This document shows, piece by piece, positions 72-9,135 of a DNA stretch of 40,736 nt; positions within the stretch are counted from its first letter, which is position 1, and every line of letters starts with the position of its first letter. Source of the stretch: a virus. Made by a program: the position numbers and the translations under genes. The notes beneath the pieces were generated by a model. It ran no database searches, was not told the DNA's origin, and saw only the letters and a list, made by a program, of their open reading frames with translations. The stretch spans positions 1 to 40,736 of the IMG/VR virus record IMGVR_UViG_3300047476_001065. The stretch is one strand, 5' to 3'.

Positions 72-2255
72 TTAAATTCCTGTTCCTGATGGTAAAGCAA
101 GCGCACGAATATCAGTCAAGAATGGACAAATTGTTCCATCATTTGCCGCCATCACAACCTTAATTGCAAATTGGCTGAACTGTGTATATGTTTGGCCACT
201 TGTACTTGTGTATGAAATATAATTGTCTGGATTATTATTTGTACCAGGAGCACATTCAAATTCAATTAAATTTTCCTTTGAAGTGGAATATATATTCGCA
301 CCTTTAATCTGAGTCATTAACTGCCACTCTTGTTCATCAAAATTCTGGTCATCATTTCTATTCAGAATCTTGTAGTACACATATATTTCAGTACCAAAAG
401 GTTTGTATGCAGTGTAAAATACTCTTAGATCACCTGAGTCATTGTTAGGTGCAAGAACAACTTTCTTAGTGAAGTATTTAGCGAGTGAGTTACCACCACG
501 TGACGATGTTTCACCAAAAACAACTACGTTTGCAGGCGTTGTATTTGCACCATATACTGTGATTGTTGGTGATTTAATATAACCAGAACCACCATATGTG
601 ACATATACCGATGATACTACATTTGATGTACCATTATTTGCAACCGTTACACTAATAACTGCACTGTCTGTTCCAACGTCTGGTGCTGAGATAGTTGCAT
701 AGGTATTTGCAGCGTCATTATAACCTGAACCAGTATTTGCTAGAGAGATTACAGCATTTGATATACTCATATTATTGATGATGTACTGTATGTTGTACAT
801 GGTAGTACCATCATCTGAAATAATAGGACTCAAATTTGGATCACTAGATTGCATTGTTGCATACATTGAGAATGAATGTGCAGTATCTTTCAACAATACA
901 CGTTGGCCTTTACCGTCATCAAATTCAATGTTGTCTGGTGTTGGTGAACCAAACTTACCTGGAAAGGCTTGTATTGCTCCCGTAGGAACATTACCATCTG
1001 CAAGTGTTGCTTCGTATGTATATGAAATTGATGTTCCTGAAGGAATAAAATCAGTCGTAGTCAAATTAATAGCATCAGACCAGGTTGTTTCCACAAAGTT
1101 GTCTGTTAGGTTAGTAACGTTGTTTGCATCGATTGAATGTTGAATGTCATTGGTACCTAGTTTTCTACGTGGCAATCCTTTAGGTATTGAGAATTGAACG
1201 TATGGTGTAATAGTTGTATCAAATACACACCTATCAATAATAAACATCATTGATTTTGTTTGGTCGGCAGTCCAAGTAATAGAGTTCTGTGATTCAAACA
1301 ATGCACCAACGTAAGGCGCACCACCAACTTTAGTAGGTGATGCTGGATCTGGATCTGTAGGTAAAGCTTTTGCAGTTGAAGGCACAGCAATCTTATTTTG
1401 TTGTGCATAATACAATACATAATCGGGTGTAGTTGTTTCCACTAGGACTGCATACATAACTCCGCCTTGAATATAGACGGGTGATTCAAACATAAACTCT
1501 GTGTAAGTCGAAGAATCCAAATAGTGTGGTTTTTTGGAAGTATTAACATTATCAGCTGATAGTATTACAGTTGAGTGATCCAACTTGACGCCATTTGGAT
1601 ATCCATTTAGTGTACCAATAATAGAAACTTTAATTGGAATATTTGTATCTGGTTTTGAATAGAAAAATAATTTAACGGAAGAAATAAACAAACCGTTGGG
1701 ATAATTATCTTTATCCAATATGAATGTTTGTGCTACTGGATCCCATGGCTGATATGTTGTTATTGTACTTATTAATTGTTTTTCTCTTTGTCTAACTTGT
1801 GTAAATGCAGTTGAAGCTGAGTCTATTGAAGGACCAAATTCTAATTTTTGTGATGTTGTAGAAAGGCCTGATGCTGTAAATGTTCCTTCAGCATAGGCCG
1901 TTGCTGTCATGGGGTCTGCATCAACACTTCTGTTATCAACTCTGAATATTCTTTGTCCTGTTTGAAATGTTCCTCCGGGAACATTAAAAATACCAACAAA
2001 ATTACCTGATTCATCTGTTGATAATTTAGGTAAACCTGTACCTGTTTTTACTGCTGTAGTAAGGTCTGTAACGTTACCAATAAGATTGTATTGAGAGGTT
2101 ACATCACCGACAGACTCATTATATCCCAGTGATACATTAATTGGTGTTTCTAATGTAACGATTTTGGTAGCTGCATCATAAGCAATAATATTTGCAGTTT
2201 TTTTGTAATACTGAGTTATTATTCGTGTTGGTGATGTTGTATAATTATATGGCAT
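72..2255 (-). CDS. Large virion structural protein (baseplate/tail-fibre associated)
   Basis: A 727-residue protein downstream of the DUF4815 gene in the late tail operon. The N-terminus (residues about 18-60) carries a short beta-rich segment of the kind found repeatedly in aquatic T4-like tail proteins. The middle contains the block around DPVAQTFILDKDNYPNGLF, followed by a jelly-roll-like stretch typical of phage fibre/structural proteins. Residues about 500-590 hold two copies of the GxGY beta module also present in gp6, gp7 and gp8 here. No enzymatic motif or signal peptide is seen. GGAAG precedes the ATG by a few bases. A virion protein at the baseplate rim or fibre attachment is the likely role, inferred from position and composition; the exact T4 counterpart (gp9/gp10 region) is unclear. 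Confidence 0.7.
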   Translation of the reverse strand: MPYNYTTSPTRIITQYYKKTANIIAYDAATKIVTLETPINVSLGYNESVGDVTSQYNLIGNVTDLTTAVKTGTGLPKLSTDESGNFVGIFNVPGGTFQTGQRIFRVDNRSVDADPMTATAYAEGTFTASGLSTTSQKLEFGPSIDSASTAFTQVRQREKQLISTITTYQPWDPVAQTFILDKDNYPNGLFISSVKLFFYSKPDTNIPIKVSIIGTLNGYPNGVKLDHSTVILSADNVNTSKKPHYLDSSTYTEFMFESPVYIQGGVMYAVLVETTTPDYVLYYAQQNKIAVPSTAKALPTDPDPASPTKVGGAPYVGALFESQNSITWTADQTKSMMFIIDRCVFDTTITPYVQFSIPKGLPRRKLGTNDIQHSIDANNVTNLTDNFVETTWSDAINLTTTDFIPSGTSISYTYEATLADGNVPTGAIQAFPGKFGSPTPDNIEFDDGKGQRVLLKDTAHSFSMYATMQSSDPNLSPIISDDGTTMYNIQYIINNMSISNAVISLANTGSGYNDAANTYATISAPDVGTDSAVISVTVANNGTSNVVSSVYVTYGGSGYIKSPTITVYGANTTPANVVVFGETSSRGGNSLAKYFTKKVVLAPNNDSGDLRVFYTAYKPFGTEIYVYYKILNRNDDQNFDEQEWQLMTQIKGANIYSTSKENLIEFECAPGTNNNPDNYISYTSTSGQTYTQFSQFAIKVVMAANDGTICPFLTDIRALALPSGTGI

Positions 2256-2280: not shown

Positions 2281-5200
2281 TTATTTATTGTTGATGATAC
2301 AAGCAATTTTACCTACGATATTGAAGGTCGCCAGTAAGAACTTTTTGGTTAAAGGACTCTTATTGTCTTTAAATGATCTACCAATTAGATATTTACCTAT
2401 ACTTAGATTCATATCTCCACATAATTTATTCAATATATAACCACCATATGTTATATATTTACCTAAAGATGTTACTTCCACTAGTGTGTCAGAAATTGCT
2501 TGTTTAGTAAATGTTCCATTTTCATAGTTCAACCTCAATACACCACCATCACCAACAATAGATGTTGTTCCATAACCATTAACGATGTATGTACCATCAC
2601 CATCAACCCACAGATTGTAAACCATATCACCTTTAGCTGGTGTTCTGATTGCATCATCCATCTGATTAATATGTCCTAACCATGGATACAGGTTCATTAT
2701 TTCTTTAGAAATAGGGCAACTTAATTGACCATCAATATAAAGTGGATGGTTAATTGTTGCGAATGGTTTTAGTTTTTTGTTTGGTGAATATAGTTCCATG
2801 AATGTAGAATCTAATGTTTCCTCTACAAACATTACAACATTCAACATTTTCTTATTGTGGTTAAATACTACATCACCAACTTTAACGTCTTTGATTTTCT
2901 TTTCTGTTCCATCGGCCATTAATATCAAAGTATCTTTGGTGAAACATCTACCTCCACTACTTGGTGGTGGTGGAGGTGGAACATATGTTGCGCTTTGTAC
3001 TGTATATGAATAACAATATTTCGATTGTATTGCAAGCTTGGCACCAACATAATAATCATTGACATCTGAAGCGTTAGCATCTAATGCTAATTTTGTTACA
3101 CCAGTGAACCATGCACCACCTTTTGGCATAACTATTTGTTGTGCAACATCATTATAACTTGATGCTGGTGGTGATGTGGATTGGTAAATTATTTCACCAG
3201 CAGAATTTTTACCTACAACTGCAACTGCACCTGGACTACCAGCTGTTGTTGTTGCATACACTCTAATAGTATGTGAACCAACAGTTAAATACTTGGTATT
3301 GGATGTTGTTGTTCTTGGACCAGCACTGTGAACAATAACATTATTTGCCGCACTAGTTCCACCAACTCTAAGTGTACCTGTACCACTAGCACTCATTACA
3401 AATGTATATGTGCCGGCCTCTTGAACATCTACAACAAAGGTTAAATCAAACGTTCCGGATTTAGATAAATCACCCCAAACACCATATTGATTTAAGAAAG
3501 TTCCCCAATCATTTGCAGATTGTATTTTGTAAATATTTGATTCTGCGCCACCGCCAGCTGGGTTATATTTTCCACCAACACCAGTAATTACACCTGATGT
3601 GTGTAATGGAGTTACAGAAGCTGACTCATTAATGAATCCGTATGCCGTATTAGATGCTGCTGCATTATACTGGCCTGCTGAGTCAAACACAGCATTTTGA
3701 ATTATACTGGTTGTTGTGGATTTTTGAGCACCTAATAATGCAGAAATATACAATCGAGCACTTGTACTATCTGGATAGTTGTACATACCAACAACTCTAC
3801 CAAGTGGATTAAATTTATTTGCTGTATAGAATCCTACAATATCATTCTCTTTGAATTTACCTCCAACATTTACAAGTTCAATAGTGTTTGGTGAAGTCAT
3901 ATAATCATTTGCTTTTATACCATCAAACCAACATGATACTTCACTATTGATTAGTAGACCTTTAGCTCTTACTATAATTTGTTGTGGTCTAATGTATGGT
4001 AATACAGCAATGTTTGTTAGATAACCATTGTTACTACCAACAGTAGATGATACTTGACTGTAACCAGCTTTAGTAACATTACCTAATTGACTTGCGTATG
4101 TGTCGGTTGTTGTTGCAATAAATCCACGACCAGTAGTTACTGTTGATGTAGATTCTGAAGTTCCAGGAATTGTTGCAAAGTCTCCTGAATTCAGTAAGTT
4201 AACACCATTTGTTTGTTGATAAACCTTTAATGATGGATCTGTAACAAGAATAGCTGGGGCTTGGTTGTTATCTACCCAGTTATCCATTGGAGGATTTAAA
4301 CTAACAATACCTTGTGCTACAGCGACAGCAAATGGGTTTACACTTACCGTACTTGTTGCAATTGGTTGTACAATAACATTTGCTGTTGTGTATGGTAGAG
4401 TAAATATATTTGTTTGAGTGCCACCAATACTAGAAACTGAGAAATAATTTGTTTTATTTAACGTACCCAATGAATTTAATACGACTGGGTTTTGTAGTGC
4501 AAAGTTCTCTACGATATTTAAAGGTCCAAGTCTTTTCTTTCTTGTATTCACATTGGCTTGGAAGTCTGGATTGGCCGTATCAGCAGTTGAGTATGATGAG
4601 AAATCATCAACTAAGATACCATTTTTAAATCTATTCAGACCATTAACATCTTGTACTTGTAATGATTGTGCATTTGTTTCTAACAAACTCAATGCAGAAT
4701 AATATTCTAAGTTATTAACACGAGTTTGTAGGTCTGTGATATCTCTCTTAATCCAATTTTTATGTAATACTTTTTCGATTGAGAGGTTTGCATCAACTTG
4801 TCCTGTTGCTTCACCTGGAATATAAGCTGTGTAAGGATCCAATGTAAGGTTGGCCAACACTAAAGAACCATCAGGCTCAGTTGGGAAAATTGGATCAGTT
4901 GATGGTGTACCTTTTATAATCTTAAATTCTTTATCTTTTGTTAGAACAAGTTTATCTTTTCTTGCCAAGTAGTAGTTATAATCACTTGTATATTCTGACA
5001 AAGGTTGAGGAATTAAAATACCAGTATCATCTGATGAAGGATTACCAGTATATTCAAATTCCATTTCTGCTTGTGCGCTTTTTCTGACAGGTCTAAAATC
5101 AACACAATCTGCTAATCTATAAACAGTACCACCTTTACTTGTGTAAGTGGGAATGGATTGATAATCTTCAGGTGATGTTGATACACCACCTGATGAACCA

Positions 5201-7734
5201 GGAATATATGAATTGACACTGAAGTATCCATCACCACCTGTGTGAGCATAATAATCAAAGATGACTAGAATATTACCATCTGGTATAGATGCACCAGCAA
5301 CTAAGTCTGCCGATGCATGGTCATACATCGTATCTTTCTGTCCGTTATTTAACACAAATAATGATGTGATATCATAAGCAGCATCAATTACCATTGCACT
5401 TGTTACTGTCACTGCTGGATTTCTAGAGTTAACAACTTTAACTATTCTCTTAACATCAGAAACATATAAAGAATTTATTTTACCTATTGCTGCATGTTTA
5501 ATGTAAACTTGACCTTTAGTTAAATCGATATATGTGCTTGAATTGATTGTGTTACTTACACCAGATGTGCTTGCAACTGTAACGTTACCTGTAACGAGGT
5601 TTTTGGCCTTTAATATTGTTGTAGAATCATCCGCATTTGAAATTGAAACATCTGCAATAACATCAACAACAGTACCACTAGCATGAGTTGTTGATCTTAA
5701 TGTGGCAGTTTTCTTATCAGAAGAAATTGTTATTGTATTTCCTGATGTTGAGAAATCTAAAATTGAACCTGTTGATTGGTTAATAACAATGAAGTTTTGT
5801 TTAGCTACATCAGAGGATAATTGACCTGTACCAGTGAACACCTGAGGTGTACCTGAAGGTATAGTTATTGCTAGTGTTGCCGTACCACTAACATTCGTTA
5901 ATGTTTTAGAACGGAATACTTTTGATGAGTTGTAATCACTATTTGAAATGTTTGCAACATATTGGTAACCAATTGGGAATACTAGTTCTGGAACCTTAGG
6001 GTTCGTTAATATTGTATCACCTGTGACCAACCCATTTGTTTTACCTGCATTAGCAATTTGTGCTGTGGCAATAATACTACCACTACTATTCTTTGTTATG
6101 AAAGAATCCACATCTTTAACTTTGAAAGCAAAAGAGAAATTAGAACTACTATCAACTGCAACAGTAAATGGAGTATCCACGGTAGCAGTTTTGGTTGCTC
6201 CATTATAAGACACAACTGTTCTTCTATCACCAGTGCTTGCTCCACCAGTAATTGTTATTGTTGATCCATAATATGCATTTGCAACATTTGAGAAAGTGCC
6301 GTTAGTATCTAAGAATTGAATAGTTGTTGCTGAACCTGATGCAGCAGTACCATTCAATGTTGTTGTGGAGATATCGGTAACATAGGCCTTATAGGTATAT
6401 GTTGATGTGTCTGAGTCTGATGTGCTTGATTCAAACTGTAAATTTCTGATATAGGCAGTACCAACTAATGTGGAGTTATATGTCGTTGCATTGGCTGAGT
6501 ATATATTTGAACTCGTTACACAATGTAAATCAATTTTAGGCATTGTGGTAATGTCAAATTTACCATTAATACGATTTACAATCAAGTAACTACCGTAATC
6601 GAAGAATACTGGATTGTTTTCATATGAATCGGTTGTTCTTGCTCTATCATTTTCTAATAGTAGATCAGACTGGTTTTCTATTCTATAACCATGTACATAT
6701 GCAACACCTTTACCTAATCTAAGATCAAATTTAGATTCATCTGCATTTGTTACAGGAGTGATTCTGAATTCGTTTACAACATAATCACCGTTACTTTCAT
6801 AGTCACGCTTAGCAAAGTAATCATCAATAACAGAATATACTGTACCATCAACTTGTTTAACTATAAGGCCATTTTCAATTCTTAATAGTTCAACAAAAGA
6901 ATCGTCATCACCTAGTTTTAAAGGTTTAGAAACTAGTGATAGTGTAATTTGATATCTATCTGCACCTGGTGCTTGATAGTTGGATGCACCAACAGCTGGA
7001 TCCAATAACGATGTATCACCAAGATATGTAACAATATTTTCTGCAATATCTAAACCAACACGGTAAGATGGTGTGTTACTGTATGCATCTAGAATTGTGG
7101 TTTGTGGTAATACTGATACAAAATTACCAATTGAATATTTGGAATATGAACCATCTGGATTTGGTGTAGATGAGTTACTATAACCATTTACAATATAGAA
7201 TACACCTTGTGAGATCGATGCGGTCGAGGCCTTGCCTGAACATGTAGTCCCGCCTGCAACACCAATGGTTAATGCAACCGTGCTTGATCCATCAACGCAG
7301 GACACGGTCATTCCATCAGTGAACTGTGCGCCAGAATAATAATTAATAATAATGGTAGGTGGTAAATTGGAATCTATTAAAGAACCTTCTCTATATGCCA
7401 CAACCTTTGCACGAACTGTACCTGTATCATCAGTAATTTCTTTGTTTAAGAAGTCAGAAACTACGATGTCCACGTTTTGATATTGTGGTTGTAATTTAAG
7501 ATATGTACAATTTAAATTTGTGGTAACTTTACCACCGGTAACTGGAGTATTCTGAGAGAAAATGTGATCAGCAAAGTTGGAGATTTGATTCTGTAGAATA
7601 CTTTGAGATTGAGTTAACTCTCTAGCTTGAACGGCTGAACCTGGTTTGAATAGTATACGATGAAAATTTTTACTTGGATCAAAATCATCATAGTATGGAT
7701 CAACGTTAAAATTAATTGCTTCTTTAATAGCCAT
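2281..7734 (-). CDS. Giant DUF4815-type tail structural protein with C-terminal Hint domain
   Basis: At 1817 residues this is the largest gene of the window. The N-terminus (FNVDPYYDDFDPSKNFHRIL, then KPGSAVQARELTQ) is the hallmark of DUF4815 virion proteins of aquatic T4-like phages and probably occupies the first half. Residues about 1400-1500 look like a PA14/CBM-like beta-sandwich (GTYTFVMSASG, GSHTIRVYA). A run of six prolines (about 1586-1591) leads into a Hint domain starting at Cys1597 (CFTKDTLILMADGT), with a TxxH motif at 1660-1663 (TINHPLY) and a late block around YNLWVDGDGTYIVNG. The last 80 residues follow the Hint core. It is adjacent to gp8 and has AAGGG as ribosome site. It probably belongs to the baseplate periphery or fibre network. 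Self-cleavage before Cys1597 is predicted, not shown. Confidence 0.8.
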   Translation of the reverse strand: MAIKEAINFNVDPYYDDFDPSKNFHRILFKPGSAVQARELTQSQSILQNQISNFADHIFSQNTPVTGGKVTTNLNCTYLKLQPQYQNVDIVVSDFLNKEITDDTGTVRAKVVAYREGSLIDSNLPPTIIINYYSGAQFTDGMTVSCVDGSSTVALTIGVAGGTTCSGKASTASISQGVFYIVNGYSNSSTPNPDGSYSKYSIGNFVSVLPQTTILDAYSNTPSYRVGLDIAENIVTYLGDTSLLDPAVGASNYQAPGADRYQITLSLVSKPLKLGDDDSFVELLRIENGLIVKQVDGTVYSVIDDYFAKRDYESNGDYVVNEFRITPVTNADESKFDLRLGKGVAYVHGYRIENQSDLLLENDRARTTDSYENNPVFFDYGSYLIVNRINGKFDITTMPKIDLHCVTSSNIYSANATTYNSTLVGTAYIRNLQFESSTSDSDTSTYTYKAYVTDISTTTLNGTAASGSATTIQFLDTNGTFSNVANAYYGSTITITGGASTGDRRTVVSYNGATKTATVDTPFTVAVDSSSNFSFAFKVKDVDSFITKNSSGSIIATAQIANAGKTNGLVTGDTILTNPKVPELVFPIGYQYVANISNSDYNSSKVFRSKTLTNVSGTATLAITIPSGTPQVFTGTGQLSSDVAKQNFIVINQSTGSILDFSTSGNTITISSDKKTATLRSTTHASGTVVDVIADVSISNADDSTTILKAKNLVTGNVTVASTSGVSNTINSSTYIDLTKGQVYIKHAAIGKINSLYVSDVKRIVKVVNSRNPAVTVTSAMVIDAAYDITSLFVLNNGQKDTMYDHASADLVAGASIPDGNILVIFDYYAHTGGDGYFSVNSYIPGSSGGVSTSPEDYQSIPTYTSKGGTVYRLADCVDFRPVRKSAQAEMEFEYTGNPSSDDTGILIPQPLSEYTSDYNYYLARKDKLVLTKDKEFKIIKGTPSTDPIFPTEPDGSLVLANLTLDPYTAYIPGEATGQVDANLSIEKVLHKNWIKRDITDLQTRVNNLEYYSALSLLETNAQSLQVQDVNGLNRFKNGILVDDFSSYSTADTANPDFQANVNTRKKRLGPLNIVENFALQNPVVLNSLGTLNKTNYFSVSSIGGTQTNIFTLPYTTANVIVQPIATSTVSVNPFAVAVAQGIVSLNPPMDNWVDNNQAPAILVTDPSLKVYQQTNGVNLLNSGDFATIPGTSESTSTVTTGRGFIATTTDTYASQLGNVTKAGYSQVSSTVGSNNGYLTNIAVLPYIRPQQIIVRAKGLLINSEVSCWFDGIKANDYMTSPNTIELVNVGGKFKENDIVGFYTANKFNPLGRVVGMYNYPDSTSARLYISALLGAQKSTTTSIIQNAVFDSAGQYNAAASNTAYGFINESASVTPLHTSGVITGVGGKYNPAGGGAESNIYKIQSANDWGTFLNQYGVWGDLSKSGTFDLTFVVDVQEAGTYTFVMSASGTGTLRVGGTSAANNVIVHSAGPRTTTSNTKYLTVGSHTIRVYATTTAGSPGAVAVVGKNSAGEIIYQSTSPPASSYNDVAQQIVMPKGGAWFTGVTKLALDANASDVNDYYVGAKLAIQSKYCYSYTVQSATYVPPPPPPSSGGRCFTKDTLILMADGTEKKIKDVKVGDVVFNHNKKMLNVVMFVEETLDSTFMELYSPNKKLKPFATINHPLYIDGQLSCPISKEIMNLYPWLGHINQMDDAIRTPAKGDMVYNLWVDGDGTYIVNGYGTTSIVGDGGVLRLNYENGTFTKQAISDTLVEVTSLGKYITYGGYILNKLCGDMNLSIGKYLIGRSFKDNKSPLTKKFLLATFNIVGKIACIINNK
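2500..2946 (-). other. Hint (hedgehog/intein-type) autoprocessing domain within the giant tail protein
   Basis: The block starts with Cys (codon 2944-2946) in the motif CFTKDTLILMADG, the usual block A of inteins and hedgehog proteins. It is followed by IKDVKVGDVVF and the block B motif TINHPLY with the Thr and His expected for the N-S acyl shift. Block F-like YNLWV and TYIVNG follow. The usual terminal His-Asn of splicing inteins is absent (GYGTTSIVGDGG instead) and there is no complete C-extein. Cleavage of a hedgehog or bacterial-intein-like kind is therefore more likely than splicing. Confidence 0.8.
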
Positions 7735-7743
7735 TTTTTTCCC

Positions 7744-9135
7744 TTAGTAACCTAATACAAACTTAAATTGTTCTATACCGTCTGTGTTTCTTTGAACACC
7801 TGATCTATTCTCTACAAACATAAGGTGTCCGGAGAATGTTATATATTCAGGTGGATTAATATTATTAATTGTTCTGACTGTCTTTGATGTGTCACCAAAA
7901 ATTGGTTGATTTGGTTCCGGTGTTCCATTCATATTTATAACTCGTATTACATTGTTTGACGAATCAAAATCTAAAACATTTGCTGTGAATGTACTTGCGG
8001 CCAAAGAAGAACCTTGATATACAATTTCATCCTCAACATACGTACCAAAACCTAGAGCTACTGTTAATTGTGTTGAACAATCGTATACTGTACCATTAGC
8101 AATTGCCCAATTTTCAGGTGCAGGTAATTTAACTGATGGGTCAACAATAATACCTACTTGATGGAAGTCGATGTCTGTAGATATTTTACCACCTTCTGTT
8201 CCAGTAAACTGTGCAATTAACATAACATGTTCACAACCAAGTTCGGTTAAAAGATCACTGCCGTGGCCACCGATTGGTGAAACACCAGCATATGCATTGG
8301 CACCAGAACCTAAATTGGATGTTATGTTGATATTTGCATAAGTATAACCTGTGCCTTTATTGGTAACTGTAATGTCAACAATCTGATTATTGGCGTCGGA
8401 TGCTATCGCAGTTGCACCAGTTCCATCACCCTGTATTGTTACAAAGATGGCTGCATTATCTGAATCGTAACCTGAACCACCATTTAGAACATTAATTACT
8501 TCAATGTTACCAGCACCAGCTGGATCTCCTATTGTGGTTTCTGTAGTTGTGTATATGTTAGGTGCTCTGTTTTTAATTTGAACAGGTACCCAAACACTAT
8601 CCATGAAATTGACTTTTAAACCTGTGTCAATTGTATACATGTATTTCCACTTGTAACCATCAACGTCAAGAAAAATACCATCATCGTTGAATGTTCCTGG
8701 TTCAAAGTATGGTTCTACAGTTGACGGTGCACCGTTGTTATTCCATAGACATTTAAATATCTGGTCATACTTGTTCTTCACATAGAACTTATACACTAAA
8801 AGACCACTAGAAGATTTTTGATAGATGTCTAAATCTTCTTGGTAATACGTGTACACTTCACCTGAAGTCCAGTCTACACGTTGAATTACTGGACAAATAT
8901 TATTAACACTAATCTTTTTGACCGCAAAGATGTTTTTGCGAATCTGTTTCATCGAATATGGGCTGAAACTAGGTGCAGGTGGAAATTGATCGTTTGGCCA
9001 AACATCAACTTTAGATAAGAAACAATAATAGTTTGTAACTGGTATTTCTGAGTTGGGTATGGTTGCAACAGAAGAATAGTAACCTTGAGTTACTGCTGAT
9101 ATCTTTGCGCCGTGTGTAAGTATATTTTTATTCAT
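7744..9135 (-). CDS. gp8: Baseplate wedge protein gp8
   Basis: This 463-residue protein corresponds to T4 gp8 (334 residues), a wedge component that binds gp6, gp7 and gp10. Shared landmarks are DVWPNDQFPPAPSFSPY near the N-terminus (T4 has a similar PWSSNENEVGFAPPYP stretch), DGYKWKYMYTID at about 159-170 (T4 GDGYVWEYLFEI), and a C-terminus LMFVENRSGVQRNTDGIEQF matching the T4 pattern MENRPPI...EEINILF. The extra length comes mainly from a GxGY module inserted at about residues 209-285 (GGSGY...GDGTGATA...GTGYTYA). It lies downstream of gp6 and gp7 as in T4, with one extra fibre-like gene between gp7 and gp8. Confidence 0.88.
   Translation of the reverse strand: MNKNILTHGAKISAVTQGYYSSVATIPNSEIPVTNYYCFLSKVDVWPNDQFPPAPSFSPYSMKQIRKNIFAVKKISVNNICPVIQRVDWTSGEVYTYYQEDLDIYQKSSSGLLVYKFYVKNKYDQIFKCLWNNNGAPSTVEPYFEPGTFNDDGIFLDVDGYKWKYMYTIDTGLKVNFMDSVWVPVQIKNRAPNIYTTTETTIGDPAGAGNIEVINVLNGGSGYDSDNAAIFVTIQGDGTGATAIASDANNQIVDITVTNKGTGYTYANINITSNLGSGANAYAGVSPIGGHGSDLLTELGCEHVMLIAQFTGTEGGKISTDIDFHQVGIIVDPSVKLPAPENWAIANGTVYDCSTQLTVALGFGTYVEDEIVYQGSSLAASTFTANVLDFDSSNNVIRVINMNGTPEPNQPIFGDTSKTVRTINNINPPEYITFSGHLMFVENRSGVQRNTDGIEQFKFVLGY

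What the first reader, a model, noticed from the sequence alone, without database searches (positions are those of the whole stretch)
2281..2946. Giant tail protein ends in a Hint autoprocessing domain
Cys1597-led block A, TxxH block B and a block-F-like end are all present in the last 220 residues, after a proline run. The terminal His-Asn of splicing inteins is missing. Known: Hint domains cleave the bond before the Cys. Inferred: the 170-kDa N-terminal part is released, perhaps with a modified C-terminus or linked to another molecule, during virion maturation. An additional 80 residues after the Hint core could be an adduct-recognition or membrane-targeting segment.
Basis: partly seen in the sequence, partly recalled or inferred. 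Interest (0 to 1): 0.8.

Follow-up and report, generated by a model that had tools for sequence, protein, structure and literature searches.

The report
Self-processing tip on phage baseplate protein
A very large protein of a virus that infects bacteria ends in a module related to the self-cutting domains of inteins and Hedgehog, joined to a conserved helical tail; relatives of the virus carry unrelated cysteine-led modules at the same spot, which suggests a family of interchangeable end-pieces that probably help to finish the virus tail.

Summary
The 1817-residue protein (window 2281-7734, minus strand) is a VrlC/DUF4815 baseplate-type protein whose last 221 residues begin at Cys1597 with a Hint domain. 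Pfam Hom_end_hint passes its cut-off when the tail is scanned alone. A confident AlphaFold model (pLDDT 91, pTM 0.87) superposes on BIL, intein and Hedgehog structures (best Z 15.6). Block B TxxH is intact, block F is present, and intein His-Asn is replaced by Thr-Ser. The model continues into five helices (about 1731-1814). Fifty-nine non-redundant phage relatives keep Cys1, TxxH and this extension; none has the terminal Asn. It is therefore not a splicing intein but a BIL/Hog-like terminal module. N-terminal self-cleavage is likely but untested; the proposed adduct is speculation. Unexpected context: in relatives the carrier and the next gene are one fused chain without the module (28 of 28), or two genes (35). 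In 28 of those 35 the first gene ends in Hint+extension or in one of two unrelated helical cassettes, each also starting with a conserved Cys after a linker usually rich in Gly. Cassette type changes repeatedly on the tree. Some relatives carry 4-7 tandem Hints. New variant of a known kind.

The parts
2281..7734 (-). giant VrlC/DUF4815-type baseplate protein, 1817 aa (carrier plus Hint module)
   Evidence: PF16075 2.3e-61; phrog_358 positions 4-1258 E 9e-232
3814..7719 (-). conserved N-part (residues 6-1307), homologous to the N-terminal part of single-chain VrlC proteins
   Evidence: single-chain homologue PHM2_088 in P-HM2
3256..3546 (-). weak carbohydrate-binding-like (CBM_35) stretch, residues 1397-1493
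   Evidence: PF16990 E 0.0073, 17.1 bits, below the cut-off of 28
2947..2994 (-). Pro/Gly linker before the module (residues 1581-1596)
   Evidence: similar Gly/Pro/Ser-rich linkers in most relatives
2557..2946 (-). Hint core, Cys1597-Ile1726
2944..2946 (-). Cys1597, predicted nucleophile
   Evidence: present in every relative not cut off by a contig end
2746..2757 (-). block B TxxH, T1660-H1663
   Evidence: T and H invariant in 59 of 59
2557..2622 (-). block F, residues 1705-1726, ending G-T-T-S-I where inteins have V-H-N
2284..2556 (-). conserved helical C-terminal extension, residues 1727-1817
   Evidence: five helices in a confident model; present in all complete relatives; dN/dS 0.21
72..2255 (-). 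next gene, 727 aa: the C-part that is fused to the carrier in single-chain homologues
   Evidence: phrog_358 positions 1300-1615; fused in 28 of 63 distinct relatives
7744..9135 (-). gp8-like baseplate wedge gene next to the carrier
   Evidence: phrog_438 6e-76, PF09215 1.3e-5

Best explanation
The last 221 residues form a terminal autoprocessing module of the HINT superfamily, closest to BIL (intein-like) domains in fold and Hedgehog-like in layout (Hint core plus an inseparable helical extension, no terminal Asn). Shown: the fold, intact Cys1 and TxxH, loss of the intein C-terminal Asn, a conserved extension, and a strictly C-terminal position on a baseplate-type protein that in homologues is fused to the next gene. 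Inferred: after translation, Cys1597 attacks the Arg1596-Cys1597 bond, and the thioester is hydrolysed or resolved by a small nucleophile. This releases the roughly 170-kDa baseplate protein from the Hint-helical tip. There is no C-terminal cleavage and no splicing. The tip most likely assists folding, oligomerisation or assembly before it is removed, as the unrelated C-terminal chaperone domains of tailspikes do; this last step is the least certain. Two other Cys-led helical cassettes found at the same site probably do the same job.
For: Hint fold. Catalytic residues invariant and Asn never present in 59 relatives. Extension inseparable from the core in every complete member. Purifying selection on both. 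Baseplate context; VrlC described as part of the two-layered baseplate (PMC7029224). Cassettes only where the carrier ends a protein, 28 of 35 split against 0 of 28 fused. Exchange of Hint, c2 and c3 on carriers 55-68% identical over about 1600 aa. Repeated changes on the tree of the next gene. B-type BILs, which also lack the C-terminal motif, cleave at the N-terminus (PMC7765530).
Against: No cleavage was measured. Seven of 35 split carriers have no cassette, so it is dispensable in some lineages. The extension is not homologous to any known chaperone domain by the tests run here. Cassettes c2 and c3 have no Hint fold evidence, so shared function rests on shared position and the Cys-led layout. 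The residue before Cys is Gly in 38 of 66 linkers but Arg in the window.
Confidence: 0.6

Rival explanations
1. Transfer rather than hydrolysis: the thioester is passed to a specific acceptor (an amine or hydroxyl of another virion protein, a lipid or a glycan), with the helical extension as acceptor-recognition part, as the SRR of Hedgehog does for cholesterol.
For: Hog-like layout with an inseparable extension; the homologous single chain joins what is here two gene products, so a covalent re-link would restore that state; Vint 8r2c aligns into the extension, model 7-177; naming of the adduct recognition region in PMC2362128.
Against: No acceptor is known; the next protein has no conserved nucleophile after its start Met (MPYN, MAYT, MSYN, MGYN, MKPI); split carriers without any cassette exist.
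Confidence: 0.2
2. The module is not cleaved; the Hint fold is a structural or binding domain of the mature virion.
For: No cleavage data; the extension is well conserved; exchange with non-Hint cassettes shows that the Hint fold itself is not essential at this site.
Against: Cys1, T and H of TxxH invariant over 59 divergent relatives; tandem arrays keep Cys at the start and HN at the end of their units.
Confidence: 0.12
3. Effector release: the helical tip is a separate, membrane-active or host-acting protein freed from the carrier, in the manner of HINT in polymorphic toxins.
For: HINT releases C-terminal domains in polymorphic toxins (PMC3482391); c2 cassettes often end in a TM-like helix, 46 of 61; cassette exchange on a constant carrier.
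Against: The window's extension is not TM-like; it never varies independently of the Hint core; an immunity-type gene next door was not seen; the next gene is structural.
Confidence: 0.06
4. Decayed or split intein that joins the two gene products by trans-splicing.
For: The module lies where homologues are one chain.
Against: All blocks, A to F, lie on the first protein; no terminal Asn in any of 59 relatives and no C-extein; no nucleophile at position 2 of the next protein; no fused ORF carries the module.
Confidence: 0.02

Closest known systems
Bacterial intein-like (BIL) domains, B-type, and the ciliate BIL2 of BUBL1 (6y75)
   Same: Same fold (Z 15.6; 2lwy Z 12.7), Cys1 and TxxH; like B-type BILs, no His-Asn motif
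   Different: Conserved helical extension and terminal position on phage tail proteins; hardly any cellular members found (2 MAG contigs)
Hedgehog Hog domain (Hint plus SRR/ARR)
   Same: Hint core followed by an inseparable C-terminal region, no terminal Asn, domain at the C-terminus; Z 11.2 to 1at0
   Different: No homology of the extension to SRR was shown; the acceptor is unknown; phage instead of eukaryote; Pfam Hint below cut-off for the window (20.6 against 29.7 bits)
Vint domain (8r2c, PF14623)
   Same: Structural match Z 11.4 over 146 residues that reaches into the extension; block A and B similarity
   Different: No VWA domain; 21.6 bits against a cut-off of 27
Class 1 inteins and A-type BILs
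   Same: Blocks A, B and F
   Different: No terminal His-Asn and no C-extein
HINT in polymorphic toxins (PT-HINT)
   Same: HINT near the C-terminus of very large proteins, exchangeable tips
   Different: No toxin domain recognised and no immunity-type neighbour noticed; the extension is constant
C-terminal intramolecular chaperone autocleavage (ICA, peptidase S74) of tailspikes
   Same: Would fill the same role: a removable C-terminal module on a phage tail protein (functional analogy only)
   Different: Unrelated fold and chemistry

Membership tests
HINT superfamily (fold) | Hint beta fold | tested here: met
   AF2 pLDDT 91, best Z 15.6 to BIL2; many inteins Z above 10
HINT superfamily (fold) | N-terminal nucleophile Cys/Ser and block B TxxH | tested here: met
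   C1597, T1660 and H1663; T and H invariant in 59 of 59
Class 1 intein | terminal Asn and following nucleophile in a C-extein | tested here: not met
   Ser, Thr or Asp at that place in 59 of 59, no Asn; the module ends the protein
A-type BIL | C-terminal His-Asn | tested here: not met
   TTS or THS instead
B-type BIL | intein motifs present except the C-terminal one | tested here: met
   blocks A, B and F present, G absent; definition from PMC7765530
B-type BIL | N-terminal cleavage activity | not testable with these tools
   needs expression
Hedgehog Hog domain | Hint core plus C-terminal recognition region, no terminal Asn | tested here: met
   layout only
Hedgehog Hog domain | homology to Hog/SRR at family cut-off | tested here: inconclusive
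   PF01079 matches 19 of 21 members at E<0.01 but the window stays below cut-off; extension not tested against SRR structures
Vint | Pfam Vint cut-off and VWA partner | tested here: not met
   21.6 of 27 bits for the window, no VWA hit in the protein
VrlC/DUF4815 baseplate proteins | DUF4815 and synteny with gp8 | tested here: met
   PF16075 2.3e-61; gp8-like gene adjacent
Polymorphic toxin with PT-HINT | C-terminal toxin domain plus immunity gene | tested here: not met
   no Pfam, PHROG or NCBIfam toxin domain after the Hint core; the next gene is structural

The most novel reading that the evidence does not exclude
Phage tail and baseplate proteins use a previously unrecognised class of interchangeable, Cys-led C-terminal self-processing cassettes. 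A Hog-like Hint with a helical recognition domain is one version; the orphan helical families that start KIIC(T/N)KL and CCVVAT are Hint-free versions that also act through their first Cys. Together they cut, or covalently link, a baseplate protein that other phages make as one fused chain.
Probability: 0.22. Interest if true: 0.82.

Novelty: new variant of a known kind. Interest (0 to 1): 0.62.

Why it matters
Autoprocessing by a Hint domain in virion baseplate proteins was not found in the papers searched, and the family was absent from about 50,000 named phage records with the three members tried, so it would add a maturation step to a well-studied machine. The exchange with two orphan Cys-led cassettes gives those domains a first testable hypothesis. 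A compact Hint that may cleave only at its N-terminus and carries a natural helical partner could also serve protein engineering. Tandem arrays of up to seven Hints are unusual in their own right.

Tried and rejected
Intein or split intein: rejected (no Asn, no C-extein, all blocks on one protein). Homology between the extension and cassettes c2 or c3: hhalign probabilities under 1%, not shown. Close relatives of the window's module in 50,697 phage records: none by tblastn with three different members. Pfam, NCBIfam and PHROG scans of c2 and c3: nothing convincing. Structure of c3: all-helical, modest confidence (pLDDT 67.6), no PDB match by Foldseek, which is not evidence of a new fold. CFI-box idea for c3: no paper holds the term and no NCBIfam hit. 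Membrane targeting by the extension: no TM-like stretch. Literature on Hint in phage tails: only terminase inteins and similar found; VrlC papers read here do not mention Hint domains in that protein. One failed call for a frame error and two script failures.

Full report
What is there. The minus-strand ORF 2281-7734 encodes 1817 residues. Its first two thirds are a DUF4815/VrlC-type protein (PF16075 2.3e-61; phrog_358 9e-232), next to a gp8-like wedge gene and other T4-like baseplate genes. VrlC is described as a component of two-layered baseplates in related marine myophages (PMC7029224). After a Pro/Gly linker, Cys1597 opens a Hint domain. Pfam Hom_end_hint passes its cut-off on the isolated tail (33.0 against 32.1 bits); a profile of 21 relatives finds PI-SceI and the C. 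thermocellum BIL domain among PDB sequences.

Structure. AlphaFold2 on 21 sequences gives pLDDT 91.2 and pTM 0.87, with beta structure over residues 1597-1726 and five helices over about 1731-1814. Foldseek and VIA-align place the core with BIL2 of T. thermophila (Z 15.6), mini-inteins (about 12.5), BIL 2lwy (12.7) and Hedgehog 1at0 (11.2); the Vint structure aligns over 146 residues and reaches into the extension.

Family. Profile-guided scans of IMG/VR found 77 loci and, in the genome collection, two MAG contigs. Among 59 non-redundant members T and H of TxxH, N1719 and T1723 are invariant; the place of the intein Asn is Ser, Thr or Asp, never Asn; His precedes it in 12. Every member not cut off by a contig end starts with Cys-Phe and continues into the same extension. 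Against an 87%-identical relative dN/dS is 0.17 for the core and 0.21 for the extension. tblastn with three members found nothing in 50,697 phage records.

Context. phrog_358 spans both this protein (positions 4-1258) and the next gene (1300-1615), and the P-HM2 homologue is one ORF. Of 63 distinct relatives of the next gene (window included), 28 have it fused to the carrier and none of these holds a cassette; 35 have two genes, and in 28 of these the carrier ends in a cassette (Fisher p about 1e-11, not corrected for relatedness). Three cassette types share the layout linker-Cys-helical part: the Hint plus extension; c2, starting KIIC(T/N/K)KL (61 of 61 distinct members with an N-end have the Cys; the scan patterns did not include it); and c3, starting C(C)V(V/I)AT (15 of 17; one scan pattern included the Cys). 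Carriers 55-68% identical over about 1600 residues differ in cassette type, and two further carrier families hold both Hint and c2. On a tree of the next gene the five states need 15 changes, with at least four forced for Hint by well-supported branches.

Variants. Upstream Hints ending in VHN-K precede the terminal module in several relatives: four in L131 (five Hints in all), six in L146 (seven), three in L148 (four) and one in L162, L163, L165 and L166. L245 has such a Hint directly before a c2 cassette, so a Hint can be joined to either helical tip.

Mechanism. The chemistry of Hint domains (Cys1 N-S acyl shift helped by the block B His) and the absence of the Asn that drives C-terminal cleavage make N-terminal cleavage the expected reaction; B-type BILs with the same deficit do this (PMC7765530). 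That is inference; nothing here measured cleavage. What resolves the thioester is open: water or small thiols, or a specific acceptor in the Hog manner (PMC2362128). The next protein shows no conserved nucleophile at its start, which speaks against re-joining. The strict C-terminal position and the replacement by other helical tips favour a removable assembly or folding module; this is an analogy to tailspike chaperone domains, not a shown function.

Limits. Hits come from assembled metagenome contigs, many of them fragments. The c2 and c3 families were defined here from patterns and HMMs; their equivalence with the Hint module rests on position and layout. The tree is a quick IQ-TREE run with one support measure.

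Noticed in passing
L146:1571-7084; L131:1470-8669; L148:1-2358: Tandem arrays of 7, 5 and 4 Hint domains in single phage proteins, joined by VHN-K-(x)-CF; repeat units of one type are 57-93% identical within a protein.
   Followed up: partly
L245:247-6528: A Hint ending in VHNK is followed directly by a c2 cassette, as if c2 replaced the helical extension.
   Followed up: partly
L181:5917-7134 and 7200-8669: Two adjacent tail-type genes end in different cassettes, c2 and Hint plus extension, after similar carbohydrate-binding-like stretches.
   Followed up: no
window 2529-2946: Synonymous divergence to L012 is 0.19 in the Hint core but 0.50 in the carrier and 0.61 in the extension; may reflect recombination or chance over 85 sites.
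   Followed up: no
L134, L152, L154, L168, L129, L173: A strongly hydrophobic stretch lies immediately before the Hint Cys, so cleavage would leave a hydrophobic C-terminus.
   Followed up: no
L142, L246, L249, L252, L264, L272, L285, L290: Small proteins with an NCNCACNC-like Cys/Asn-rich stretch just before a Hint or c2 cassette.
   Followed up: no
L117:7675-9525 (Synechococcus phage SynMITS9220M01): Cultured cyanophage protein with a run of Pro and Arg followed by a c2 cassette; a practical test case.
   Followed up: partly
L006:594-2357; L032:9632-12802: Ordinary Hint/intein insertions in terminase-like proteins, found through block A similarity.
   Followed up: no
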